Positions 49,237 to 63,404 of a stretch of DNA of 64,000 nt are shown here, piece after piece. Source of the DNA: Leucobacter musarum subsp. musarum (GTDB lineage Bacteria > Actinomycetota > Actinomycetes > Actinomycetales > Microbacteriaceae); the NCBI RefSeq assembly GCF_001273845.1, contig NZ_JHBW01000069.1, positions 1 to 64,000 on the forward strand, in the 5' to 3' direction. Each line of letters starts with the position of its first letter. Positions within the stretch are counted from its first letter, which is position 1. The notes beneath the pieces were generated by a model. The model was not told where the DNA came from, made no database searches, and saw only the letters and a list, made by a program, of their open reading frames with translations. A program made the translations under genes and the position numbers.

Positions 49237-50814
49237 TCACTGCGCCGCAGCGTCGACCCACGTGTCTTGGAACCGCACGCTGCCGTTCGGCAGCACGGTG
49301 AAGCCGTGCACATCGTCGCGGGTCGCCTTCAGGTTCGACGGGAAGAAAAGCGGAATGTAGGGCACGTCATCGGCCAGGATCTGCTGAATCTCGGCGTAGA
49401 TCTTCGTGCGGTCGGCGCCTTCGGCAGTCGTGCGGCCCTGCTGCATCAACTGCGTCACGCGATCGTTGGTGTAGTGGGTCCAGTACGACTTGCTGAACCC
49501 ATCCGGGTCGGCCTGGAATGTGATGAACCCATTCGGGTCGGGCGCATCGGACTGACCGCTGTTGAGCATGAAATCGAAGTCGTAGGCGAAGAACCGCTCA
49601 CGGAACACGGCGATGTCGAGCTGCTCGATCTCCACGGTGATGCCGATCTTCGCGAGCGACTCCTGCACGATCTGCGCGATCTGCGCGCGCTGGGAATCGC
49701 CGCTCGCCAGCGACAGCGTGATCGAGAAGCCGTCGGGGTACTTCGACTTCGCGAGCTCTTTCTTGGCGGCGTCGACATCGAACTCGAGCGGCTGCACGGT
49801 GTCGTTCGCAGAGTCGACGATGGTCGGCGGCAGCAGCGCGTTCGCGACCTCGGCCGTGCCGAAGGTGGTGGCCTGGGTGATTCCGTCGCGGTCGAGCGCC
49901 AGCGCGATCGCCCGCCGCACGTGCGTGTCGGCGAACTGCTCGCGCTGCGTGTTGAAGAACACCTGCTCGGTCGACCAGCCGGCCGTCTGCGACAGCGCCG
50001 TGCCCTCGGCCGAATCGACCTGCGCGGCATTCGCGGCCGGCACGTCGTCGATGGCGCCGAGCTGACCCGCCGTGAGCTGCTGCTGCAGCTGCGTGTCGTC
50101 GGTGACGAGCTTGTAGACGAGCTGGTCGAGGTAGGGCTTGCCCTCCTGCCAGTAGTGCTCGTTCTTCACGAACGTGAGGTCGCCATTCGGATCCCACGTA
50201 TCGACGACGAACGGGCCGGTGCCGATCGGCTTCGCGAAGAAGTCTGCCTCGCTCGCGCCGCTGAAGTTGTTCGGGAAGATGCCGTTCGAGAAGCTCGCGA
50301 GTTCGGAGAGGAACGGCGTGTACGGGGCGGTCAGGGTGATGGTGACCTCGTGGTCGCCCGTCGCCGTGATCGCATCGATCGGCGCTTCGAGCGGCAGCGG
50401 GCCGCCGACCTGCCGGTGACGCTCGAGCGAGAACACGACGTCGTCGGGGGTGACCGCATCGCCGTTCGAGAACTGCAGCCCGTCGTGCAGCGTGAAGGTG
50501 TAGGTCAGGCCGTCGCTTGAGGCGTCGAAGTCGGCTAGCCAGGGGATCAGCTTGCCGTTCTCATCGAAACTCACGAGCGGTTCGAAGATCTTGTCGATCG
50601 CGAACGCGTTGTTGGCGGTGATCTGCTGGTTGAGGTCGAGATCGGTCACAGCAGCCACGCGGCCGAACTCGAGCGTGCCGCCGCTGACGGGCTCGCCGGC
50701 GGCATCGGCGCCACCGGTCGAAGTCGAGCCGCCGGCGCACGCGCTGAGCAGCAGTGCGGCGCTGAGCGCGGCCGCGGCGAGACCGAGGCGGCGAGAAGTG
50801 CGAGTGGTGGTCAC
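49237..50814 (-). CDS. Peptide-type ABC importer substrate-binding lipoprotein (family 5)
   Basis: The product of 525 aa starts at a GTG at 50814 that overlaps the amidohydrolase stop (GTGA), with AAAGGA upstream. The signal peptide ends in LLLSAC, a lipobox. Family 5 features follow (VSGGTLEFGRV..., NEHYWQEGKPYLDQLVYKL, ALDRDGIT). Ligands of this family are di- and oligopeptides, nickel chelates or opines. The amidohydrolase upstream hints at a peptide- or amide-like ligand. Confidence 0.92.
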   Translation of the reverse strand: MTTTRTSRRLGLAAAALSAALLLSACAGGSTSTGGADAAGEPVSGGTLEFGRVAAVTDLDLNQQITANNAFAIDKIFEPLVSFDENGKLIPWLADFDASSDGLTYTFTLHDGLQFSNGDAVTPDDVVFSLERHRQVGGPLPLEAPIDAITATGDHEVTITLTAPYTPFLSELASFSNGIFPNNFSGASEADFFAKPIGTGPFVVDTWDPNGDLTFVKNEHYWQEGKPYLDQLVYKLVTDDTQLQQQLTAGQLGAIDDVPAANAAQVDSAEGTALSQTAGWSTEQVFFNTQREQFADTHVRRAIALALDRDGITQATTFGTAEVANALLPPTIVDSANDTVQPLEFDVDAAKKELAKSKYPDGFSITLSLASGDSQRAQIAQIVQESLAKIGITVEIEQLDIAVFRERFFAYDFDFMLNSGQSDAPDPNGFITFQADPDGFSKSYWTHYTNDRVTQLMQQGRTTAEGADRTKIYAEIQQILADDVPYIPLFFPSNLKATRDDVHGFTVLPNGSVRFQDTWVDAAAQ

Positions 50815-52127
50815 AGAGGGGTCCTTTCGGAGGGGCTGAGAGGTGACGAGTGTGGGGGCTGTGCGGCCGCGAGAGTTGGCGACGGTGCGGGAACAGGCGG
50901 TGCAGGATCGATCCAGCGCCCGGCGAGCAGCACCCCGACGATGGCGGTGGGGTCTGAGAGTGCGCCCCGCTCGCGCGGGTCGCGGCGCAGCACGACTGCG
51001 TCGGCGACCGCACCGTCGGCGATCACCCCCGGCGCGACGTGTGGTTGGCCGCTCGAACCAGCGTCGGGCACCTCGGGTACCTCGGGTGCCTCGGGCGCTG
51101 CTCGCGCGAGGAGTGCGGCGCCCCCGCGGGTCGCCGCGAGCAGCGCTTCGTGCGGCGCCAGGCCGGCGTCGACGAGCGCGTCGAATTCGAGTCGATTGGT
51201 GCCGTGCTGATCGACCGTGCCGTAGTCGGTGCCGAGCGCGATGGCGAATCCCGCATCTCGAGCCGCGCAAACGGCGGCGGGATGCCGGGCGATCGCTTCG
51301 TCGACGCGCGCCGCGAACTGCGCGGGCAACGTGCCGTTCGAGATCATGTCGCGCACGAGCCGGTAGATGCGCAGCGTCGGCACAAAGGTCGCCCCGACCT
51401 CGGCACCGTGTCGCGCCTGATCAGGCGTGAGGTACATGCCGTGCTCGATGCTCGCGACGCCGGCATCCAGTGCATGATCGATCGCCGGGCCACCCCAGGC
51501 GTGCACCATCACGGCGGCTCCCACCGCTGACGCCCGATCGGTCGCGATGCGGAACTCGTCCGCGGTGAAGTGCGCATCGAGCGTGGCACCCGCAGGGGCT
51601 GCGACGCCGGCCGTCGCAACGAGCTTCACCCAGCGCGCACCAGACTCGAGCACGGCATCGACCGCCGCGGCGATGCCGCCCGCCGCATCGGCACGCGCTC
51701 GGTCGATCATGGCGATGGAGTGCGCGATCCGCGGTCTCACGAGCGCGCCGTCGGAGGCGTGAGTACTGCCCGGTTCGTGAGCCTCCGGCGGTTCGACGGC
51801 GAGACCACCGGCGTCGCGCACGCTCGTGAATCCGGCGCGCAACGTACGGTCGAGCCCCGCTGCGGTGAGGCGCCGGGTGTCAACGACAGAGAGGCGCGCG
51901 CGATCGGCGGCGTCGAATGCGTGCCACGCGGCGTGGACGTGCGCGTCGACCAGCCCCGGAAGCAGCCAGGCGCCATCGAGCCGGCGATCCGCCCCCGTCA
52001 CCGGCGACCCGGTGAGCTCTCGATGGGCCGCCTCACCGAGTGAGAACCGGCCTGACTCCCATGAGACGCGCATCGGTGCGGTGAAGCCCCCGGCCTCCGT
52101 GAACACGCGCAACAGCGGGGCGGTCAT
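50811..52127 (-). CDS. Amidohydrolase-family metal-dependent hydrolase
   Basis: The product of 438 aa has metal-site motifs of the amidohydrolase superfamily: LVDAHVHAAWH, the candidate carbamylated Lys in RWVKLVA, His in MVHAWGG and IEHGMY, and Asp in GTDYGTVD. It resembles imidazolonepropionase/prolidase-like cytoplasmic hydrolases that cleave cyclic or dipeptide-like amides; the substrate is unknown. A nine-base repeat near 51069-51097 encodes APEVPEVPD in a low-complexity stretch that may be a linker or a lineage-specific insert. It is the first gene of the operon ahead of the binding protein, permease and permease-ATPase fusion. Confidence 0.85.
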   Translation of the reverse strand: MTAPLLRVFTEAGGFTAPMRVSWESGRFSLGEAAHRELTGSPVTGADRRLDGAWLLPGLVDAHVHAAWHAFDAADRARLSVVDTRRLTAAGLDRTLRAGFTSVRDAGGLAVEPPEAHEPGSTHASDGALVRPRIAHSIAMIDRARADAAGGIAAAVDAVLESGARWVKLVATAGVAAPAGATLDAHFTADEFRIATDRASAVGAAVMVHAWGGPAIDHALDAGVASIEHGMYLTPDQARHGAEVGATFVPTLRIYRLVRDMISNGTLPAQFAARVDEAIARHPAAVCAARDAGFAIALGTDYGTVDQHGTNRLEFDALVDAGLAPHEALLAATRGGAALLARAAPEAPEVPEVPDAGSSGQPHVAPGVIADGAVADAVVLRRDPRERGALSDPTAIVGVLLAGRWIDPAPPVPAPSPTLAAAQPPHSSPLSPSERTPL

Positions 52128-52284: not shown

Positions 52285-52653
52285 GTGACCAGTAGTACGC
52301 CTGACGCCGCCCCGCACGCCCCGAGCCCGATTCTGCTCCTCGCTCGTGGGCTCTTCCAGCTGGCGGCCGTCGTCACCGTCACCGTCTGGGGCTTCCTCGC
52401 CTGGCCGCTGCCCTTCCCCGGAATCTTCACCGGCCTCGGCCTGCTCGCGCTCTGCGTGCTGCTGTGGGCGCTCTTCCTGTCGCCGCGCCCGGTACTGCGC
52501 GTCGATCGCTTCGCCCAGGCCCTCTTCGAGCTCTGCCTCTTCGCAGCGGCGGTCGCCGCCCTGCTCGCAATCGGCGTGTTCTGGGTGTGGCCCGTCGCCC
52601 TCGGCGTCGTCGGTGCCGCAGTCGGGTTCATCACGTCGAGCCGCTCGGAATAG
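52285..52653 (+). CDS. YrdB-like (DUF2568) small membrane protein
   Basis: The product of 122 aa has four hydrophobic helices spaced over its length. The pattern WGFLAWPLPFPGIFTG...SPRPVLRVDRFAQALFELCLFAAAVAALLAIG fits the DUF2568/YrdB family. The function is unknown. It starts at a GTG, probably from a leaderless transcript, and is followed by a flavin-dependent oxidoreductase gene 28 bp later on the same strand. Confidence 0.78.
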   Translation: MTSSTPDAAPHAPSPILLLARGLFQLAAVVTVTVWGFLAWPLPFPGIFTGLGLLALCVLLWALFLSPRPVLRVDRFAQALFELCLFAAAVAALLAIGVFWVWPVALGVVGAAVGFITSSRSE

Positions 52654-52681
52654 CAACGGGCTCTGCCGCGTTCTCACCGGC

Positions 52682-53749
52682 ATGACCCCGCTTCGCGCCG
52701 TTGCCGGCGCCACCCCCGAACAGCTCATCCTCGGCCTTGACACGTTCGGCGACCTCACGCTCGACGCGTCGGGCGGCCGCTCAACGCATGCGCAGGTGCT
52801 GCGCGATGTCGTGGAGCAGGCCGTGCTGGCCGATCAGCTCGGCGTCGACGCCATCACTCTGGGCGAGCATCACCGCGACGACTTCGCGCTCACTTCCCCC
52901 GAGATCGTGCTCGCAACGATCGCGGGCCGCACCGAGCGCATGCTGCTCGGCACCGGCGTGACCGTGCTCTCGAGCGATGACCCGGTGCGCGTCTACGAGC
53001 GGTTCGCCACGCTCGACGCCGTCAGCTCCGGGCGCGCCGAGGTCGTGCTCGGCCGCGGATCGTTCATCGAGTCGTTCCCGCTCTTCGGGTATGAGTTGGG
53101 CGACTACGAAGCGCTCTTCACCGAGAAGCTCGACCTCTTCACGAAACTGCGCGCCGAGGGGCCGATCACCTGGTCGGGTCAGCATCGTGCCGCACTGGTC
53201 GATCAAGAAGTCTTCCCGAAGACCGAGCAGCCCGATGGCGTGCGCGCCTGGGTCGGCGTGGGCGGCAGCCCCGAATCGGTCGTGCGCTCGGTGCAGACCG
53301 GCATCCCGATGATGCTCGCGATCATCGGCGGCGACCCCGCCCGCTTCGCACCGTTCGCGAACCTCTACCGCCAAGCGCAGCAGGAGCTCGACCGCGACCC
53401 CATGCCGCTCGGCGTGCACTCCCCCGGGCACGTCGCCGCGACCGACGCCGAGGCGCGCGATCAGCTGTGGCCCCACTTCGAGGCGAACCGCAACCGTATC
53501 GGCGCCGAGCGCGGGTGGCCGGCGACGACGCGTGCCGAGTTCGAGCGCGAAGCCGACGGCGGGTCCTTGTACGTCGGATCACCCGAGACCGTCGCCCGCA
53601 AGATCGCCGCCACGGTGCGCACCCTGAGCGCCGACCGCTTCGACCTCAAGTACGCGAACGGCACGATGCCGCACGCCCAGCTCATGCAGAGCATCGAGCT
53701 CTACGCCGGCGAGGTGATCCCGCGCGTGCGAGCACTGCTCGCCGAGTAG
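52682..53749 (+). CDS. Luciferase-like (LLM class) flavin-dependent oxidoreductase
   Basis: The product of 355 aa has the TIM-barrel pattern of LLM enzymes: ILGLDTFGDL, ADQLGVDAITLGEHHRDDFALTSPEIVLATIAGRTERMLLGTGV, GRAEVVLGRGSF and a C-terminal GSPETVARKIA. The GEHH segment is typical of the FMN-binding bacterial luciferase-like monooxygenases. The substrate is unknown. The ATG lacks a clear ribosome site; translation may couple to the upstream DUF2568 gene, whose stop is 28 bp before. Confidence 0.9.
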   Translation: MTPLRAVAGATPEQLILGLDTFGDLTLDASGGRSTHAQVLRDVVEQAVLADQLGVDAITLGEHHRDDFALTSPEIVLATIAGRTERMLLGTGVTVLSSDDPVRVYERFATLDAVSSGRAEVVLGRGSFIESFPLFGYELGDYEALFTEKLDLFTKLRAEGPITWSGQHRAALVDQEVFPKTEQPDGVRAWVGVGGSPESVVRSVQTGIPMMLAIIGGDPARFAPFANLYRQAQQELDRDPMPLGVHSPGHVAATDAEARDQLWPHFEANRNRIGAERGWPATTRAEFEREADGGSLYVGSPETVARKIAATVRTLSADRFDLKYANGTMPHAQLMQSIELYAGEVIPRVRALLAE

Positions 53750-53890: not shown

Positions 53891-55027
53891 TCACCCGAAG
53901 CGGCGCGCGCCCTCCTGAGCCATCACCGAGGGCGCGCCCGGGAAGTACTCGAGCACCCCGTCGGCGAGGTCGAAGCCGACCGTGAGCAGGGTGGTCCACT
54001 GCTCGTGGAGGGGCTCTGCCGCATCGGGGCGGAAGCAGACCGGTGCTTCGGCGCCGTCGGCGCCGCACATCCCCGCAGCACGGCGCTCCATCGGCTGCCC
54101 CGCCATGCGTTCGCGCTGCGCACGGACGTGCGCGAGACGCACATACGTGGTCGACTTGTCGCGCGTCGCCTCCCCCGGCAGCTGCGACTCCGCGATGAAG
54201 TTGTTCGTGTGCACGAGCCACCCGTCGGCGTCGGGTCGCACCGCGGCGACGCGCTCCGGTGAGATCTCGAAGCACGCGGCGCGGTGCTCGGCGTCGGCAG
54301 CCGCAACGACGGTGAGCACCGTCGAAGCGCTCGCGGGCGCCGACGCGATGATCGCCTCGGCCTCGTCGACCGTGGTCGCCTCGTCGAGCACCCGCCGCGC
54401 GATCGCGTGCACGGGCACCCCGTTCACCCCGCGGTCGCTGGCGTGATGCAGGATGTTGAAGTGCACCCCGATGCCGGCGTCGTTGACCCCGATCTTGCCG
54501 AGCACGCCGAGCTCCGTGAACATCGTCACGCGGCCAACACGGCGCTGCGCCTCAGCAACGTCGCCGCCGCGCAGCGGCGCATCCGGCACATCCGGCACAT
54601 CCGGCGCATACGACATGATGAGCCCGACCCGGCAGAGGTGCGCGTGCCAGTCCCAGGTCTGGATCGTCTCGGGCAGCCCGGCCCCGCCCGGCGCGAACAC
54701 CGCGGTCGAGCATTCCCCCTCGGTGTCGGGTGCCACGACGGCGAGCACCTCGGTGCGGGCGTTGAGTGCGGCCAGCTGCCACAGCGGTACCGTCGCAGCC
54801 TCGGCGGTCGCCGAGAGTTCGGCCGCGAGGTTGGGCGCCCAGGCTTCAAGCGCCGCGAAGCAGCTCAGCGCGATCTCGCGCACGCGATCCTGGTCGACCC
54901 CGCGAATCTCGAAGAACCCGAGGTACCCGGCGACGCACTCGCGGATCTCGACCGCGAAGCGCGACCCGATCTCGGCGCCGCGCTCCGCGGGCCCGGGGCC
55001 GGAAACGGTGGTGGTGATGATGTCCAA
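53891..55027 (-). CDS. C45-family autoproteolytic Ntn-hydrolase / acyltransferase
   Basis: The product of 378 aa resembles the C45 peptidase family (acyl-CoA:6-aminopenicillanic acid acyltransferase-like). These are made as inactive precursors that cleave themselves before a Cys, which becomes the N-terminal nucleophile. Here the likely nucleophile is Cys106 in TEGECSTAVFAPGG, followed by the conserved TWDWH (about 124-128), and later GKIGVNDAGIGVHFNIL and VHTNNF. It probably hydrolyses or transfers acyl groups on amide bonds. A short repeat (DVPDVPDAP) interrupts the chain near residue 143. It is the last gene of the importer-peptidase operon, 12 bp after the P1 peptidase gene. A homologue lies at 63405-64000. 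Confidence 0.87.
   Translation of the reverse strand: MDIITTTVSGPGPAERGAEIGSRFAVEIRECVAGYLGFFEIRGVDQDRVREIALSCFAALEAWAPNLAAELSATAEAATVPLWQLAALNARTEVLAVVAPDTEGECSTAVFAPGGAGLPETIQTWDWHAHLCRVGLIMSYAPDVPDVPDAPLRGGDVAEAQRRVGRVTMFTELGVLGKIGVNDAGIGVHFNILHHASDRGVNGVPVHAIARRVLDEATTVDEAEAIIASAPASASTVLTVVAAADAEHRAACFEISPERVAAVRPDADGWLVHTNNFIAESQLPGEATRDKSTTYVRLAHVRAQRERMAGQPMERRAAGMCGADGAEAPVCFRPDAAEPLHEQWTTLLTVGFDLADGVLEYFPGAPSVMAQEGARRFG

Positions 55028-56127: not shown

Positions 56128-56131
<4 letters not shown>
55040..56131 (-). CDS. P1-family (DmpA-type) self-processing aminopeptidase
   Basis: The product of 363 aa belongs to the P1 peptidase family (DmpA, BapA). Members cut themselves into two chains and release N-terminal D-amino acids, beta-amino acids or amides from small peptides. 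The predicted autocleavage site is in AGNTTISALVTN, with Thr275 (or Thr276) as nucleophile. The Gly-rich LAGGYDFNHAICLAGGSVYGLEAGAG region and MSASAGKV fit the family. The GTG start overlaps the stop of the DppF-type ATPase (GTGA), tying it to the importer. It would act in the cytosol on the imported peptide. Confidence 0.9.
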
Positions 56132-56897
<766 letters not shown>

Positions 56898-56901
<4 letters not shown>

Positions 56902-57719
56902 CGGGTCTCCTCCGTTGCGGTGCGCTGCGGCCGCTCTCGACCGGGGATCGCGGCGACGAGCACTTTCGTGTACTCCGCTTCAGGGGCGTCGAGCACCCGC
57001 GTGGTCGGGCCGGCCTCGACGATGGCGCCGCGGTGCATCACGACGACGCGATCGCACCAGCGGCGCACGGCTCCGAGGTCGTGACTGATCCAGATCAGGC
57101 TCGCACCGCTGCGTCGCACGAAACTGACGATGAGGTCGAGAATCTCGTCGCGCACCTGCGCATCGAGCGAGGCGGTGGGCTCATCGGCGATCAAGATCCG
57201 CGGTTCGCGCGCCATGGTCAGCGCGATGGCAATGCGCTGCGCCATGCCGCCCGACACCTCGTGCGGGAAGAGCCGCAGCACGCGTTCGGGTTCGAGGATC
57301 TTGACGCTCTCGAGCAGCGCGATGAGCGACGCGGCATCGGTCGGGCGACCGAGCGGACGGAGCGCGAGTTCGAGCTGGCGCTGCACCCGCATGGTGGGGT
57401 TGAGCGAGGCGATGGGATCCTGCGGAATGAATCCCAGCGACTCGCGTCGCACCGTGCGGATCGCATCGGGTCCGAGCGCCGCGAGATCTTGGCCGAGCAC
57501 GCTGACCGTGCCCGCGGTGATGTGGCAGGCACGCGGCAACAGGCGCCCGATGGCCTGCGACACGGTCGATTTGCCCGATCCCGATTCCCCGACGATCGCC
57601 ACGAGCTCTCCGGGCGCGATGTCGAGTGAAACGTCGTCGAGTGCGCGCGTGATCCCGAGGCGGGTGCGGTACTCGGCGCTCAGGCCGCTGATCGAGACGG
57701 CGGGATGGTGCGCAGTCAT
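56898..57719 (-). CDS. Peptide-type ABC importer ATPase, DppD type
   Basis: The product of 273 aa has Walker A GESGSGKS, the Q-loop region GFIPQDPIASLNPTM, a signature in which the usual LSGG reads VSGGMAQRIAIALTM, and Walker B ILIADEPTASLD. The ATG at 57719 overlaps the permease stop (ATGA). It pairs with the DppF-type ATPase. Confidence 0.93.
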
Positions 57720-58588
57720 ACGAGGCTCCTCGTCTCGCGGGGATCGAGTCGATCCCGCAGGGTGTCGCCGATGAGATTGATCGCGAGGATCGCGACAACC
57801 AGCACCGACGCGGGGGCGAAGAGCAACCAAGGCGCCTGCACCATGTAGCTCGCACCCTCCTGAATCAGCAGGCCGAGCGACGACTGCGGCAGCTGCACGC
57901 CGTACCCGAGGAAGCTCAGGCCGCCCTCGACGAGGATGCCGACGGAGAGCGCGTATGTACCCTGCACCGCGATGGTGCCGCTGATGTTGGGGAGCAGGTG
58001 CCGCACCAGGATCACCGGCGCAGATACCCCGCTGATTTTCGCGGTCGTGACGAAGTCGCGCTTCGCCACGGCCATCGATGCGGCACTGACCATGCGCGTC
58101 ATGAGCGGCACGGTGACGAGCACGATGCTCGCGAGCGCGGCGAGCTGCCCGGGGCCGACGACGGCGGCGATGAGGATCGCCAGCACGATCGACGGGAACG
58201 AGTAGAGCACGTCGACGAATCGCATGACGCCCTCGCGAGTCCAGCCGCCGAGGTAGCCGGCGACCATGCCAAGCAGCACGCTGATCACAGCGGTGCAGAG
58301 CACGGCGATCGCCGACAGCACGAGGGTCGTACCGATGCCTTCGAGCAGGCGGGCGAGCACGGAGCGGCCCAACGCGTCGGTGCCGAGCAGGTACGCGGTC
58401 GACGGCGGGCTGAGGCGCGGGCCCACGATCTTCGCGGGCTCACCCGCGAACGGCACCACGGCCGCGACGATGGCGACACCGACGATGACGGCGAGTGCGG
58501 TGACCGCGGTGACGAAGAGCGCGTCGCGCGGAGGCCGCGGGGCCGTCGGCCGCTTGCGCCGCACGAGCGGCAGCGAATAGGTCGTCAT
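57716..58588 (-). CDS. Peptide-type ABC importer permease, DppC type
   Basis: The product of 290 aa has a short cytoplasmic N-terminus, a first helix near residues 24-48, the LGTDALGRSVLARLLEG motif and the EAA-like loop around KRDFVTTAKISGVSAPVILVRHLLPN. It is coupled to the DppB gene (ATGA) and to the DppD gene (ATGA). Confidence 0.93.
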   Translation of the reverse strand: MTTYSLPLVRRKRPTAPRPPRDALFVTAVTALAVIVGVAIVAAVVPFAGEPAKIVGPRLSPPSTAYLLGTDALGRSVLARLLEGIGTTLVLSAIAVLCTAVISVLLGMVAGYLGGWTREGVMRFVDVLYSFPSIVLAILIAAVVGPGQLAALASIVLVTVPLMTRMVSAASMAVAKRDFVTTAKISGVSAPVILVRHLLPNISGTIAVQGTYALSVGILVEGGLSFLGYGVQLPQSSLGLLIQEGASYMVQAPWLLFAPASVLVVAILAINLIGDTLRDRLDPRETRSLV

Positions 58589-59556
58589 GAGCTGGCCTTC
58601 CCGGTGACGGCGACGCGCGGATCGAGCGCGCTAGTGATGAGGTCGAGCACGAGGCTGACCACGATGAACACGGTGGCGGCGAACAGCACGGACGCCTGCA
58701 CAACGGCGAAGTCGCGGCGGTCGAGGCCCGTCACCATGAAGGAGCCAAGCCCGGGCACGTTGAAAATCGTCTCGACGATCACGGCGCCACCGAGCAAATA
58801 GGCAGTGATGGTGGCGAGCAGGGTCAGGATCGGGATGCCCGCGTTGCGGATCACGTGGTGCCGCACGATGTGCCACGGTGTCTCCCCGCGCGCCACCGCC
58901 GCGGCGATGTGCGGCTCGACGAGCACGTTCATCACGGCGTCTCGGGTGGTGCGCGCCGAGGCGGCGACGCAGAACACGGAGAGCACGATCGCCGGGAGCA
59001 GCAGGGCCTGGAACGTCGGGCCGAACCCGGTGCCGATGTTCGAGAACCCGCCGACCTGAATGCCAAGCGCGAGTCGCGAGAACACGAAGACCACGACGCT
59101 GCCGAGCACGAACTCGGGCACGCTGATGCCGATGCCCGACACGAGGCGCCCGACGGCTCCGCCCTGCTTGGCTCCGGATCGCACCCCCGTCCAGATACCG
59201 AGCGGAATGCCGATGAGCAGCGTGATGACGAGCGCCATCACGGTCAGCAGCGAGGTCACGGGGATGCGCTTCGCGAGTTCGTCGACGACGGGATTCTGGG
59301 TGACGAAGGACGTGCCGAGGTCACCGGTGACGATCTGCCCGATCCAGGCGAAGTACTGGATCACGATGGGCTGATCCAACCCGTACGCCGCGGCGAGCGC
59401 CGCACGCTCCTCGGGCGAAGCGAGCGGTCCCAGGATGATGTCTTCGTAGCTGCCCGGCATGAGCCGCACGGCGGCGAAAATCAGGATGGACACGCCGAGC
59501 AGGGTGATGAGCGCGCTCACCACCCGCCCGGCGGACCAGCGAAGTGTCTGCAGCAT
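58585..59556 (-). CDS. Peptide-type ABC importer permease, DppB type
   Basis: The product of 323 aa starts with one helix followed by RLMPGSYEDIILGPLASPEERAALAAAYGLDQP, the DppB hallmark. About five more helices follow, including LLGGAVIVETIFNVPGLGSFMVTGLDRRDF near the end. It begins 6 bp after the binding-protein stop and overlaps the DppC gene. Confidence 0.93.
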   Translation of the reverse strand: MLQTLRWSAGRVVSALITLLGVSILIFAAVRLMPGSYEDIILGPLASPEERAALAAAYGLDQPIVIQYFAWIGQIVTGDLGTSFVTQNPVVDELAKRIPVTSLLTVMALVITLLIGIPLGIWTGVRSGAKQGGAVGRLVSGIGISVPEFVLGSVVVFVFSRLALGIQVGGFSNIGTGFGPTFQALLLPAIVLSVFCVAASARTTRDAVMNVLVEPHIAAAVARGETPWHIVRHHVIRNAGIPILTLLATITAYLLGGAVIVETIFNVPGLGSFMVTGLDRRDFAVVQASVLFAATVFIVVSLVLDLITSALDPRVAVTGKASS

Positions 59557-59562
59557 GCGCGA

Positions 59563-61203
59563 TTACTCGCCCGCGATCCGGTACTCCGCGATGTTGCGGA
59601 GGATGTCGCCGTAGCCCTCATTGCTCTGAATGGTGGGGCTCACGCTCGCGGTGTCGAACCCGATAATCGAGGGCCGGTGCACGAGCGGCACGATCTCGGA
59701 GTACTCGTCGGCGGTGGCGCAGAGGTCGGTGAGTACCTCGGCGCGCTCATCGGCGTCGGTGGTCTCGGCGCCGCGCTGGATCAGCTGGTTGAGATCGTCG
59801 TGCACGCCTGTGAAGCCGACGTTGAAGCCCGCCTGCTCGGGGTTCCACCACTTCGTCACCATCGACGGGTCGACGTAGCCCGCGAACCAGCCAAGCGAGA
59901 GATCGAAGTCTCCCGGCTGCGCGGTGAAGACCCGGGCGTTGTAGGTCGCCGTGTCGTACTGCTCGATCTCAACGGTGACCCCGATCTCGGCGAGCTGCTG
60001 CTGCACGAGCTGGGCGATCTGGCCCATCACGGGTTCCGACGTGTACACGAGCAGGCTCAGCTTCGTGTCGCCGGCTCCTGACTGCTCGATGATCTGCTTG
60101 GCGTCATCGAGGCTCGCCTGTTCGGAGGGCAGGCTGTCGACCGCGCACGCTCCCGGCAGGTTCGAGGGGGTGACGCCGGTGGGGCTCGTCTGCCCGGCGA
60201 ACACGATGTCGGCGATGGCCTGGCGGTCGATCGCGGTGTTGATCGCGAACCGCACGTCTTGATCTTGCAGCGGCGAATCGGCGACCTGCGAGTTCACGTT
60301 GAGGTAGTAGAAGTCGCTCTGGGTCTGGTTGACGACTTTGACGTTGCTCGCATCGCCGAGCTGCGTTAACGCGTCGATGCTCACGAAGTTCGCGAGCCCG
60401 GCGCTGCCTTCGCGGAGCGCCGCCTGACGCGTCGTCTCTTGATCGACGATCTGCAGGTCGAGCGTCTGCACCGCGAGGTCGTCGCCGCCGTGCCAGTCGG
60501 GGTTCGCGGTGAACGTCCACGACTCGTCTTGCCGGTGATCGCCGACCACGTAGGGGCCGGTGCCGAGCATCGTCGTCTTCAGGTCGAGGCTGCCGTCGGT
60601 CACCTCTTGCATGGGCAGGATCGCCGCGGGCGTGTTGGCGAGCGCCGCGAGGAAGGGCGCGTACGGGCTCGACAGCTTGACCGTCACCTGGTCGTCACCG
60701 GTCGCGGTGATCGATTCGACCGGCCCCATCTGCCCCGACCACACGCTCATGCTGTCGATCTGCCGCTGCAGGCTGCCCACGACGTCGGCCGGAGTCAGCG
60801 CGCGCCCGTTGGAGAAGGTGGCGTCCGTGTCGATCGTGAAGACGTAGGTCGTGTCGTCGGGCTGCTCCCACGACGTGGCGAGCTGCGGCGTGATCTCGAA
60901 GTTCTCGTCGGTGGTCACGAGCGTTTCGTAGACGAGGCCCATGATGCTCCAGGAGCGCGCGGTCTGCGCGGTCGCGGGATCGAGGCCGTCGGCCTCGCTC
61001 GTGTCGTAGTCGAGCTGCACGGTGAGCTCTCCCTGATCGGTCAGCGCGTCATCGGCGACGGCGAGGAACCCGGGTGCGGCTTCTTCCTGCTCGGTCTGGC
61101 CTGCTCCGGCCTCGGGTGCGGCGCACGAGCTGAGCACGCAGGCCAGGCCCAGTGCGAGCGCGGCGCCGGCGGCTCCCCGCGTTCGGGTACGTGAGAGTTT
61201 CAT
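59563..61203 (-). CDS. Peptide-type ABC importer substrate-binding lipoprotein (family 5)
   Basis: The product of 546 aa starts at the ATG at 61203, with GAAGGAG about 12 nt upstream. The signal peptide ends LACVLSSCAAPE, so a lipoprotein anchored through Cys. The mature part has family 5 features (SWSIMGLVYETLVTTDENFEITPQLATSWEQ, FSNGRALTPADVV, NPDWHGGDDLAVQTLDLQIV). It is the first gene of the second importer operon, divergent from the LacI-type regulator. The promoter between them carries candidate LacI-type operators. Confidence 0.93.
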   Translation of the reverse strand: MKLSRTRTRGAAGAALALGLACVLSSCAAPEAGAGQTEQEEAAPGFLAVADDALTDQGELTVQLDYDTSEADGLDPATAQTARSWSIMGLVYETLVTTDENFEITPQLATSWEQPDDTTYVFTIDTDATFSNGRALTPADVVGSLQRQIDSMSVWSGQMGPVESITATGDDQVTVKLSSPYAPFLAALANTPAAILPMQEVTDGSLDLKTTMLGTGPYVVGDHRQDESWTFTANPDWHGGDDLAVQTLDLQIVDQETTRQAALREGSAGLANFVSIDALTQLGDASNVKVVNQTQSDFYYLNVNSQVADSPLQDQDVRFAINTAIDRQAIADIVFAGQTSPTGVTPSNLPGACAVDSLPSEQASLDDAKQIIEQSGAGDTKLSLLVYTSEPVMGQIAQLVQQQLAEIGVTVEIEQYDTATYNARVFTAQPGDFDLSLGWFAGYVDPSMVTKWWNPEQAGFNVGFTGVHDDLNQLIQRGAETTDADERAEVLTDLCATADEYSEIVPLVHRPSIIGFDTASVSPTIQSNEGYGDILRNIAEYRIAGE

Positions 61204-61299: not shown

Positions 61300-61328
61300 A
61301 ACGTACAGACACAAATCGTTTTATGCAA
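61300..61328 (-). promoter_or_regulatory. Promoter of the second importer-peptidase operon, with operator in the spacer
   Basis: On the minus strand TTGCAT (61328-61323) and TACGTT (61305-61300) are separated by exactly 17 bp. The spacer contains AAAACGATTTGTG (61322-61310), one of four similar motifs around the lacI-type gene. Binding there would block RNA polymerase. Confidence 0.6.
61310..61322 (-). promoter_or_regulatory. Candidate LacI-type operator O1
   Basis: AAAACGATTTGTG, centred on CG as is usual for LacI-family sites (near-palindrome AAAACG/ATTT), lies within the importer promoter spacer. Confidence 0.6.
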
Positions 61329-61333
61329 TCTCG

Positions 61334-61343
61334 TAATCGAATT
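61334..61343. promoter_or_regulatory. Candidate LacI-type operator O2 (weaker)
   Basis: TAATCGAATT keeps the central TCGA of the other sites. Its centre is 21 bp from that of O1, two helical turns, which would favour cooperative binding. Confidence 0.4.
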
Positions 61344-61359
61344 GTCATCGAATGCGCAT

Positions 61360-61372
61360 TAATCGATTTGTG
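61360..61372 (+). promoter_or_regulatory. Candidate LacI-type operator O3
   Basis: TAATCGATTTGTG contains the perfect palindrome AATCGATT and shares CGATTTGTG with O1. It overlaps the -35 region expected for the regulator gene itself (candidate -10 TAGTGT at 61387-61392), suggesting autoregulation. Confidence 0.55.
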
Positions 61373-61417
61373 CCCCGATTTCGCGCTAGTGTCGTGAGCG
61401 GATCTCAAGGAGGAAGC

Positions 61418-62437
61418 ATGGCCGGTCGCCGCAACGTCACGATCAAGGACGTCGCCGCACGCGCGGGGGTCTCGATCACCGCGGTCTCGCACGCTCTCAA
61501 CGACAAGGGCACCCTCTCTGACGAGACCCGGGCACGGGTGCAGCGGGTCGCCCTCGAGATGGGGTACCAGGCAGACGCGCTCGCTCGCGGACTCCGGCGA
61601 TCCCCCATCGGCGTGATCGGCATCGTGCTGCGCCCGCTCGACGCGCTCGCGAACTACAGCCCGCCCGGCGTTGACTACTTCCTCCGTTTTTCGGGCGCGG
61701 CCGCCGTCAGCGCACTCGATCACGGGCTCAGCCTCATGCAGGTCGCCGACCTCGTGAAGGGGCCCGTCACGCCACTCGCGTTCTCGCTCGACGGCTACGT
61801 CGTCACTGACCCGGTGCGCAACGATCCCGTCGTCGAACTCCTCGAGAACCGCAGCATCCCCTACGTGACGCTCGGCCGCGACCCCGGCAAACCCGACGCC
61901 GAGAATTGGGTCGCCTCCGACGACACTGCGGCCACGCGACTCGCGCTCGATCACCTCGCCGCGGAGGGGGCGCGCAGCGTCGCCTTCGTCGGCGGTACCG
62001 ACGACAACTCATGGAACTCCGATGCCGAGGCGGCCTACCTGGCCTGGTGCGCCGAGCGGGGCGACTCCCCCCGCATCTCCCGGGTCGCCGAGGGGCTGGG
62101 CGAAGCCGGCGGGCGATCACTCGTTCCGTCGCTGCTCGCAGACGGGGCCCCCGACGCGATCTACTCGCTCACCGGCCGGCACGCCGCCGGCATTCAAGAG
62201 GCGATGCGCGAGCACGGACTCATCGCTCCGACGCACTATCTGCTCGCGTGCGGCACGGATGCCGCTCAGACACGCACGGCCGAGCCACCCATCACCGCGA
62301 TCGACCTGCGACCCGAGACGCTCGCTCGCGAGACCGTCGCGCTCCTCGCGCAGATCACCCGAGGGGAACAGCCCGAGGGGCGCCGACTCGTGCCGTCGGA
62401 GTTGATCGTGCGACGCTCATCACAGCGCGACGCGTGA
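61418..62437 (+). CDS. LacI-family transcriptional regulator
   Basis: The product of 339 aa starts at the ATG at 61418 with AAGGAGG five nt upstream; the frame extends further up but without a start signal. It has an N-terminal LacI HTH (VTIKDVAARAGVSITAVSHALN, about residues 7-28) and hinge (QADALARGLRRSPIGVIGIV). The periplasmic-binding-protein-like ligand domain ends with VPSELIVRRSS. The ligand-domain variant has no close hint of a sugar. Divergence from a peptide importer-peptidase operon and the shared operator motif suggest it represses that operon until the imported compound or a product binds. Confidence 0.93.
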   Translation: MAGRRNVTIKDVAARAGVSITAVSHALNDKGTLSDETRARVQRVALEMGYQADALARGLRRSPIGVIGIVLRPLDALANYSPPGVDYFLRFSGAAAVSALDHGLSLMQVADLVKGPVTPLAFSLDGYVVTDPVRNDPVVELLENRSIPYVTLGRDPGKPDAENWVASDDTAATRLALDHLAAEGARSVAFVGGTDDNSWNSDAEAAYLAWCAERGDSPRISRVAEGLGEAGGRSLVPSLLADGAPDAIYSLTGRHAAGIQEAMREHGLIAPTHYLLACGTDAAQTRTAEPPITAIDLRPETLARETVALLAQITRGEQPEGRRLVPSELIVRRSSQRDA

Positions 62438-62447
62438 GATCTGCGCG

Positions 62448-63104
62448 CTAACCACGCGTCCCCTCGGGGCATGTCACGCCGACCTCACCCATCAGGTCGG
62501 CCACGTCGGGGTGGCGGTGATCCCCCTCCCGCAAATCGCGCTGCACTCGGGCGTGCACGTCGGTCGGCATGTCTTGACTCAGCTTGAACATCGCCGACTC
62601 GGTCTCGATATCGATGGTGAACGACACGACGCCCGTCAGGATCTTCTCGAACACGTGCCTCGATTCCGCAGGATCCCACGGCTTCGCGCGCGCACCCTCG
62701 AGCTGCGCGACGGTCCGCTCGACCACCGCAAGGTTCTCGGCCGGCTCCTCGAGCACCGTCACGCGCCCGGTGAGGTGCACGGTGGCGTAGTCGAGCGTCG
62801 GCACTGCGGGGGTGAACTCGTACGCGCTGGGCGAGACGTACGCGTGCGACGAGGCGAAGACGAGCAGCACCTGCGGCTGCTCGGCGAAGAGCTTCCAGTG
62901 CTCGTTCGCTCGCCCGATATGCCCCCACAGGCGCGTACCGACCAGCGTCTCCCCCGCTTCGACGCCCGGCGGAAACACGATGGGTGTGTGGGTCGCGAGC
63001 GGCGCCCCAGCGGTCGAGGTGGTGACGACGGCGAAGGGGTGATCCCGAACGAACTCGGCGATCGCGTGCCCGGACGGTGCGAGGTAACTGGGGTAGGTGT
63101 GCAT
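62448..63104 (-). CDS. PaiB-like FMN-binding protein
   Basis: The product of 218 aa begins MHTYPSYLAPSGHAIAEFVR and contains THTPIVFPPGVEAGETLVGTRLWGHIGRANEHWK, the pattern of PaiB-type FMN-binding negative regulators, which share a split-barrel flavin fold. In Bacillus, PaiB works with the acetyltransferase PaiA in control of degradative enzymes. The ATG has AAGGAG upstream. Its promoter carries an operator motif nearly identical to the one in front of the importer operon. It is convergent with the lacI-type gene (10-bp gap). Confidence 0.87.
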   Translation of the reverse strand: MHTYPSYLAPSGHAIAEFVRDHPFAVVTTSTAGAPLATHTPIVFPPGVEAGETLVGTRLWGHIGRANEHWKLFAEQPQVLLVFASSHAYVSPSAYEFTPAVPTLDYATVHLTGRVTVLEEPAENLAVVERTVAQLEGARAKPWDPAESRHVFEKILTGVVSFTIDIETESAMFKLSQDMPTDVHARVQRDLREGDHRHPDVADLMGEVGVTCPEGTRG

Positions 63105-63404
63105 GCGGCGACTCCTTGCGGGCGGGCGCGAGCACCGGGCTCGTCCCTGAGCGTGAAAACTGCGGTGTGCCAGTCAGCCTAGGGAAGTAAAACGATTTAT
63201 GCCAGCCCGAGACGGATCGATGTGGCGACCCAGCCTCGTCACGTGCACCGAAGCGCGGAGATTCAGGAACTTGCGGACCGATTCGCTCAATTCCGTCCGC
63301 GATCCCCGGAATCCCCGCTGTTCAGGCAGCTGGCGCAGCCAGGTCAATGGGCGCAGCCAGGCCAACACGTGTAGCGAGGGGCGGATCGCCCCCACCCGCA
63401 CCCT
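63105..63404. other. Intergenic region with PaiB promoter and operator
   Basis: No convincing gene is seen in this 300-bp gap. It holds the PaiB promoter and operator (63176-63205), a GCGCAGCCAGG direct repeat (63333-63343 and 63351-63361), an inverted pair GCGGAC/GTCCGC (63271-63276 and 63293-63298) and a short stem GGGGCG-GAT-CGCCCC (63378-63392), which could end the C45 gene at 63405. Confidence 0.4.
63176..63205 (-). promoter_or_regulatory. Promoter of the PaiB-like gene, with LacI-type operator O4
   Basis: On the minus strand CTGGCA (63205-63200) and TAGGCT (63181-63176) are separated by 18 bp. The plus strand reads AAAACGATTTATG (63189-63201), 12 of 13 bases identical to O1. As in the importer promoter, it lies between the -35 and -10 boxes. 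Confidence 0.55.

What the first reader, a model, noticed from the sequence alone, without database searches (positions are those of the whole stretch)
61300..63205. Shared LacI-type operator motif links a peptide importer-peptidase operon, its regulator and a PaiB-like gene
Four related motifs centred on CG are present: AAAACGATTTGTG (61310-61322, minus), TAATCGAATT (61334-61343), TAATCGATTTGTG (61360-61372) and AAAACGATTTATG (63189-63201). O1 and O4 differ at one base in 13, and both lie in the spacer of a candidate promoter (TTGCAT-17-TACGTT and CTGGCA-18-TAGGCT). O3 overlaps the likely -35 of the lacI-type gene. The inference is a small regulon comprising an importer, two self-processing amide hydrolases, a flavin protein and the regulator.
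Basis: partly seen in the sequence, partly recalled or inferred. Interest (0 to 1): 0.72.

Follow-up and report, generated by a model that had tools for sequence, protein, structure and literature searches.

The report
Repressor switch for nylonase-type operon
A Leucobacter bacterium carries a chromosomal set of genes that look able to import and cut amide-linked oligomers, including a close relative of the nylon-oligomer enzyme NylC, and a neighbouring repressor gene with matching DNA sites probably turns the set on and off.

Summary
Three of the four motifs hold up. O1 (61310-61325), O3 (61357-61372) and O4 (63186-63201) are 16-bp CG-centred palindromes, CAYAAAWCGWTTTRTG; O2 is not one, but lies in a different conserved repeat. 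Of 54 Leucobacter genomes, 10 have a LacI1 orthologue, and all 10 have the palindrome at the lacI1/importer promoter. The 8 whose PaiB-like gene stands apart have it there too; the 2 with that gene inside the operon do not. An eleventh genome with a divergent regulator has a changed palindrome at both promoters. In the LacI1 genomes the operator lies exactly 4 nt before a TANNNT -10 at 18 of 18 of these promoters; O3 lies 14 nt before lacI1's -10 in 7 of 10. Exact sites occur in 8 of 54 genomes, all with LacI1. The regulon is well supported by comparison (no binding assay). This looks like a native, LacI-controlled NylC operon. Inducer and natural substrate are unknown.

The parts
61310..61325 (-). 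Operator O1 (CATAAAACGATTTGTG), inside the importer promoter
   Evidence: 0 mismatches to CAYAAAWCGWTTTRTG; present in 10 of 10 LacI1 genomes; 4 nt from a TANNNT in 10 of 10
61300..61305 (-). Candidate -10 (TACGTT) of the importer operon
   Evidence: TANNNT at offset 4 after the operator in 10 of 10 LacI1 genomes
61323..61328 (-). Candidate -35 (TTGCAT) of the importer operon, overlapping O1
   Evidence: sequence; TTGCAT or TTGTAT in 8 of 11 aligned promoters
61333..61348 (+). Direct repeat GTNAY-N6-GTNAY that contains O2; candidate site of a second, unidentified regulator
   Evidence: 6 of 10 LacI1 genomes at 6-7 nt from O1, and in opposite orientation in G019; 7 of 1298 background 60-nt windows; pattern chosen after seeing it
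61357..61372 (+). Operator O3 (CATTAATCGATTTGTG), over the likely -35 of lacI1: autoregulation
   Evidence: 1 mismatch; second site 14 nt before lacI1's TANNNT in 7 of 10 LacI1 genomes (scores 12-15 of 16), 6 nt in one, none in two
61387..61392 (+). Candidate -10 (TAGTGT) of lacI1
   Evidence: conserved register with O3
63186..63201 (-). Operator O4 (CATAAATCGTTTTACT), inside the PaiB-like promoter
   Evidence: 2 mismatches; site in 8 of 8 stand-alone PaiB-like genes of LacI1 genomes, absent in 2 of 2 inside the operon
63176..63181 (-). Candidate -10 (TAGGCT) of the PaiB-like gene
   Evidence: TANNNT at offset 4 in 8 of 8 LacI1 genomes; offset 3 in G019
61418..62437 (+). lacI1, LacI-family repressor (339 aa)
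   Evidence: PF00356 and PF13377; orthologues 60-86% in 9 further Leucobacter
59563..61203 (-). Extracellular solute-binding lipoprotein (SBP_bac_5)
   Evidence: PF00496; lipobox LSSC in the translation
58585..59556 (-). ABC permease 1 (Opp/Nik type)
   Evidence: PF00528, PF19300
57716..58588 (-). ABC permease 2
   Evidence: PF00528; overlaps the previous gene by 4 nt
56898..57719 (-). ABC ATPase 1 (start taken at the ATG overlapping the permease stop)
   Evidence: PF00005 on the longer frame 56898-57830; start region read
56128..56901 (-). ABC ATPase 2
   Evidence: PF00005
55040..56131 (-). NylC-type endo-hydrolase (family S58), likely self-cleaving at Asn274/Thr275
   Evidence: E 5.9e-194 to PDB 5xyg; 82.9% identity over 351 aa, K189, N219, N266/T267 equivalents kept
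53891..55027 (-). C45 autoproteolytic acyltransferase/hydrolase, likely nucleophile Cys106
   Evidence: NF040521 217 bits, cut-off 85; ECST motif in the 10 of 10 rows I aligned
62448..63104 (-). PaiB-like FMN-binding protein
   Evidence: PF04299, E 2e-39; inside the operon between nylC and C45 genes in L078, L079, L088, L171

Best explanation
LacI1 (61418-62437) is a local repressor. As a dimer it binds 16-bp CG-centred palindromes in the spacer of two promoters (O1 for the seven-gene importer-nylC-C45 operon, O4 for the PaiB-like gene) and over the -35 of its own promoter (O3), blocking RNA polymerase. A molecule that enters through the importer, or a product of the NylC-type and C45 hydrolases, most likely releases it, so that uptake and cleavage of amide-linked oligomers is substrate-induced. 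Shown by comparison: the sites, their register, their co-inheritance with LacI1 and the operon. Inferred: binding, repression as the sign, the inducer, the substrate. The confidence is for the regulon (LacI1 acting at O1, O3 and O4); the inducer step is nearer 0.6.
For: Site at the lacI1/importer promoter in 10 of 10 LacI1 genomes, 0 of 300 dinucleotide shuffles reaching the score in each. Stand-alone PaiB-like gene: site in 8 of 8 (0 of 300 each); PaiB-like gene inside the operon: none in 2 of 2 (212 and 294 of 300). Fixed register, operator + 4 nt + TANNNT, at 18 of 18 promoters of LacI1 genomes; O3 14 nt before lacI1's -10 in 7 of 10. Exact pattern in 8 of 54 genomes, all 8 with LacI1, all 10 places in this locus; reversed control 0 in 54. 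NylC-type gene in 11 of 54 genomes: the 10 with LacI1 plus G019. CG-centred 16-nt palindromes and autoregulation are normal for LacI factors (PMC4052901, passages).
Against: No binding or expression data. The scoring pattern was drawn from the same loci and widened once after seeing them (CRY...RYG), so the shuffle counts are not independent of it. G032 and G052 have LacI1 but no exact match and no O3-like site. Close relatives share promoter sequence by descent, which inflates the 10 of 10. G019's importer site does not stand out under the LacI1 pattern (34 of 300 shuffles reach it); it counts only as a changed palindrome, and its -10 register differs (a TATAAT at 2 nt, with a TAATCT at 4; PaiB at 3). 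O4 departs from the palindrome at one outer end. In G010 the contig ends just past the promoter, so the importer beside lacI1 is not seen there.
Confidence: 0.87

Rival explanations
1. The sites belong to the neighbouring paralogue LacI2 (G000:C98:70053-71072, outside the window) or are shared by both, because LacI2's own operator CCCAAAACGNTTTGTG shares the half ATTTGTG.
Against: In the 22 genomes whose best regulator is of the 39-46% class (G019 among them), none has an exact LacI1-type site. In the LacI1 genomes seen the two loci keep distinct flanks (CAY and CCC). Partial cross-talk is not excluded.
Confidence: 0.07
2. The palindromes are real LacI1 operators but LacI1 is an activator or dual regulator of some targets.
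For: LacI factors can be dual, as predicted for PckR (PMC4052901, passages).
Against: The operator sits inside the -35/-10 spacer, 4 nt from the -10, at 18 of 18 promoters of LacI1 genomes, a blocking position.
Confidence: 0.04
3. Motif likeness is a by-product of AT-rich promoter cores and shared descent, with no LacI regulator involved.
For: Sites lie in the AT-rich core of promoters in a GC-rich genome, and the genomes are close relatives.
Against: Presence and absence follows the regulator and the position of the PaiB-like gene, and both sites differ together in G019.
Confidence: 0.02

Closest known systems
LacI-family local regulons (survey with 1,303 LacI factors, Ravcheev et al. 2014, PMC4052901; passages seen)
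   Same: CG-centred even palindromes of 16 nt and more, local regulons, frequent autoregulation.
   Different: The effectors named in the passages I saw are sugars and derivatives, nucleobases, nucleosides and HPr; 'peptid' occurs 0 times in that main text. Here the target is an oligopeptide-type importer with two amide hydrolases.
nylC region of plasmid pOAD2 and of Agromyces
   Same: opp (oligopeptide importer) genes lie in the same region as nylB and nylC in both Arthrobacter and Agromyces (PMC7019077, passages and a figure legend); the solved NylC is 83% identical to the window's and 93% to L. celer's.
   Different: The Leucobacter locus is in large chromosomal contigs and has lacI1, C45 and PaiB-like genes and operators. 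Whether pOAD2 keeps a regulator or operator could not be read: no close NylC was found in the plasmid collection (best 60.6%).
LacI2-importer-C45 unit next door and LacI-C45-MFS loci in other actinobacteria
   Same: A LacI1-like regulator near a C45 gene: 55 of 77 fetched loci.
   Different: 49 of those 55 loci show no NylC-type gene (some are cut short); in L080, L106 and L130 the frame next to the C45 gene is an MFS transporter.

Membership tests
LacI-family repressor | N-terminal LacI HTH and periplasmic-binding-protein-like domain | tested here: met
   PF00356 52.9 bits, PF13377 81.5 bits, both over cut-off
LacI-family repressor | CG-centred even palindrome at target promoters | tested here: met
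LacI-family repressor | specific binding to the operator and release by an effector | not testable with these tools
   needs protein
[quoted passage not shown]
   82.9% over 351 aa, E 5.9e-194; no NCBIfam model matched it
[quoted passage not shown]
   N274/T275, K197, N227 in the window protein
[quoted passage not shown]
   needs enzyme assay
C45 autoproteolytic acyltransferase/hydrolase | NF040521 match and nucleophile Cys at the processing site | tested here: met
   ECST in the 10 of 10 rows aligned
PaiB (Bacillus) function | regulatory role recalled for B. subtilis PaiB | not tested
   only the FMN_bind_2 domain was shown

The most novel reading that the evidence does not exclude
This locus is the native form of the nylon-oligomer hydrolase system: the plasmid nylC (and probably its opp genes) was taken from a Leucobacter-type LacI-controlled operon, and LacI1 is a natural sensor of nylon-like, omega-amino-acid amide oligomers or their products.
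Probability: 0.3. Interest if true: 0.87.

Novelty: new variant of a known kind. Interest (0 to 1): 0.68.

Why it matters
NylC enzymes are lead biocatalysts for breaking down nylon (PMC13343204, abstract in the listing), yet I did not find their ordinary cellular role or control described (search listings; passages). This locus gives a NylC-type enzyme a chromosomal operon, an importer, two partner proteins and a regulator with defined operators. That makes its natural substrate testable (what releases LacI1?), offers a candidate sensor for polyamide oligomers, and points to Leucobacter as a possible source of the plasmid gene. It would also put a LacI factor in charge of amide-oligomer uptake rather than sugars.

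Tried and rejected
O2 (61334-61343) as a LacI1 operator: rejected, 10 of 16. On re-checking, its surroundings turned out to be conserved as a direct repeat in 6 of 10 LacI1 genomes, so it is not meaningless sequence; the pattern was chosen after seeing it. Shared control by LacI2: considered, not favoured (rivals). A count-only argument for O4: rejected, because with the wider pattern at 2 mismatches the control is nearly as frequent in the own genome. A sigma-70 consensus scan gave nothing. Reading the pOAD2 neighbourhood: not possible, no close NylC in the plasmid collection, and no LacI1 orthologue there (best 45.9%). An order sample of 396 genomes searched for NylC at E <= 1e-80 found 2 beside the own genome, 53-54%, with at most 5 candidates scored per genome in the rows shown. 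Of these, G165 shows the same gene order with PaiB inside, a 31% LacI and a different palindrome, GCCGGAACGTTCCGGC; G188 has a 31% LacI facing the NylC relative and only a weak palindrome. Frames next to the C45 gene in C45-only loci: MFS in 3 of the 5 scanned, no family in 2. Helical phasing of O1 and O3: spacings of 34-36, 47-48 and 60 bp give no single phase.

The tree claim is bounded. With 35 rows, the branches joining solved NylC with P0009, G005 and G050 are starred. With five long rows dropped (P0063, P0069, P0022, P0024, P0042) the four-row group stays at 100/97, and the two inside it fall to 87/83 and 94/96. An AU test against keeping solved NylC and P0009 outside the other 19 rows gave p 0.0126, but the group was chosen after seeing the tree. 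That 5xyg is plasmid NylC rests on four residues (D36, D122, H130, E263) inferred from the mutation names in PMC6021441.

Full report
WHAT IS THERE. From 61203 down to 53891 on the minus strand run seven tightly packed genes: solute-binding lipoprotein, two permeases, two ATPases, a family S58 hydrolase and a C45 hydrolase. Four junctions overlap by 4 nt; the other two are 6 and 12 nt apart. lacI1 (61418-62437, plus) is divergent. The PaiB-like FMN-binding gene (62448-63104, minus) lies tail to tail with it.

THE MOTIFS. O1, O3 and O4 are at the coordinates given. As 16-mers they fit CAYAAAWCGWTTTRTG with 0, 1 and 2 mismatches and are the only places in the own genome at 2 or fewer. The pattern came from a first look at the orthologues, and counts with a slightly wider pattern do not by themselves set O4 apart from chance (4/3 against 3/2). 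O2 is weak as a palindrome (10 of 16).

FOOTPRINTING. Of 54 Leucobacter genomes searched with LacI1, 10 (own included) have an orthologue at 60% identity or more. The importer operon is seen beside lacI1 in 9 of them; in G010 the contig ends just past the promoter and the rest of the operon is on another contig. All 10 carry the site at the lacI1/importer promoter, with 0 of 300 dinucleotide shuffles of the upstream 250 bases reaching the score in each. In 8 of the 10 the PaiB-like gene stands on the far side of lacI1, as in the window, and all 8 have a site in its upstream 200 bases (0 of 300 each). In the other 2 (G007, G052) it lies inside the operon between nylC and the C45 gene and has no site of its own (212 and 294 of 300 shuffles reach its score). 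PaiB inside the operon is also the order in Sediminivirga (L088) and in G165 of another family (L171), so it is probably the older arrangement; the gene that stands apart has the same operator.

CO-VARIATION. The eleventh genome with a NylC-type gene, G019, has a LacI only 43-45% identical beside the same importer operon. Its importer promoter carries TTTAAAACGTTTTAAA and its separate PaiB-like gene TTTAAAACGATTTAAA. Both sites differ from the LacI1 sites in the same outer bases, as a shared regulator requires. Under the LacI1 pattern itself this importer site does not stand out (34 of 300 shuffles).

REGISTER. In the LacI1 genomes a TANNNT begins exactly 4 nt after the operator in 10 of 10 importer promoters and 8 of 8 PaiB promoters. 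In G019 the importer promoter has TATAAT at 2 nt (and TAATCT at 4), and the PaiB promoter TACACT at 3. Over offsets 0 to 29 the only TANNNT not yet named is one at 15 in the PaiB set. O1 and O4 therefore cover the spacer and part of the -35. On the lacI1 side a second site (12-15 of 16) ends 14 nt before lacI1's TANNNT in 7 of 10 LacI1 genomes, 6 nt before in G007, and is missing in G032 and G052. This places O3 over lacI1's -35 and supports autoregulation, though less uniformly.

SPECIFICITY. The exact pattern CRYAAAWCGWTTTRYG (widened after seeing G007 and G010) occurs in 8 of 54 genomes, all with LacI1, and all 10 places are in this locus; the reversed control occurs in none. G032 and G052 have LacI1 but only near-matches. 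The paralogue LacI2 (G000:C98:70053-71072; 45%) has its own tandem palindromes with CCC/GGG flanks. The 22 genomes whose best regulator is of that 39-46% class, G019 among them, have no exact LacI1-type site. Some cross-binding through the shared half-site remains possible.

A SECOND ELEMENT. O2 lies in GTAATCGAATTGTCAT (61333-61348), a direct repeat GTNAY-N6-GTNAY just upstream of the importer's -35. It recurs 6-7 nt from O1 in 6 of 10 LacI1 genomes (G000, G002, G009, G010, G007, G052) and in opposite orientation in G019, against 7 of 1298 background 60-nt windows; it is absent upstream of 8 of 8 PaiB sites. The 11-bp period and place suggest an activator. From memory only, it resembles the repeats bound by GlnR-type nitrogen regulators; this was not tested, and the pattern was made after seeing the sequences.

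WHAT THE OPERON IS. The S58 protein matches NylC, the nylon-6 oligomer endo-hydrolase, over nearly its whole length, with 82.9% identity over 351 residues and the autocleavage pair and presumed catalytic Lys and Asn kept (residues named in PMC6021441, passages). NylC-type genes are in 11 of 54 Leucobacter genomes at E <= 1e-60, but in only 2 others of an order sample of 396 (own included) at E <= 1e-80, at 53-54%. The protein database also holds NylC-like proteins in other genera, for example 77% in Microbacterium maritypicum, so the family is not confined to Leucobacter. The solved chain 5xyg is 93.2% identical to G005 (L. celer) and 92.0% to G050 (contig length of L. triazinivorans), and nests with them in the tree. 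PMC7019077 (passages) reports opp genes in the same region as nylC on the Arthrobacter plasmid and in Agromyces, which fits the importer here. No paper in the held library has nylC together with Leucobacter or with LacI.

WIDER SETTING. Of 77 loci fetched with the LacI1/LacI2 alignment (best 80 kept of 352 confirmed), 55 have a C45 gene near the regulator: 6 with a NylC-type gene, 30 with importer and C45, 19 with C45 but without both permeases. Two have importer only and 20 none of these. Short loci can miss genes: L075 is cut before its nylC operon, which one search shows in G010. Many carry AAAACGTTTT-type palindromes upstream, some none. The C45 hydrolase is thus the steadiest partner of this regulator branch, and NylC looks like an addition.

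MECHANISM AND LIMITS. The best reading is a substrate-induced repressor acting by steric block at three promoters. The sign, the inducer and the substrate are inferred. The NylC and C45 families cut amide bonds after self-cleavage (family knowledge) and the importer is of the Opp/Nik type, so the substrate is likely an oligoamide; whether it resembles nylon, a natural omega-amino-acid amide or an unusual peptide cannot be said from sequence.

Noticed in passing
G000:C98:63405-71072 (partly beyond the window; L009 13405-20000, L010 1-2072): A second, paralogous unit: LacI2, divergent importer and C45 gene, with two adjoining CG-centred palindromes (AAAACGGTTTGTT, AAAACGTTTTGGG) in its promoter; in G000, G002, G005, G009, G010 and G050 the two lacI genes stand 8.6-9.5 kb apart.
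   Followed up: partly
window 61333-61348: Direct repeat GTNAY-N6-GTNAY upstream of the importer -35, conserved in 6 of 10 LacI1 genomes; possible site of a second regulator, perhaps nitrogen control (recalled resemblance).
   Followed up: partly
L080, L106, L130: In Streptomyces, Microbacterium and Kocuria a LacI1-like regulator lies by a C45 gene followed by an MFS transporter frame instead of the ABC importer.
   Followed up: partly
L014 about 2556-2631 (G010); L012 and L013 equivalents: Around the O3 position these genomes hold CATG-N-ATCG-like copies 12 bp apart (three in G010, two in G002 and G009), as if the operator region is expanding.
   Followed up: no
L164 13390-15200 (G019): In L. 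komagatae about 1.8 kb between nylC and two C45 genes matched none of the query proteins; by eye it looks like an amidohydrolase frame (untested).
   Followed up: no
window 50811-52127 (-) and 52346-53749 (+): An amidohydrolase gene (PF01979) and a convergent gene whose product I took by eye for a luciferase-like flavin oxidoreductase (not scanned) lie past the operon's downstream end; relatives of the latter turn up in 11 of the 77 loci.
   Followed up: no
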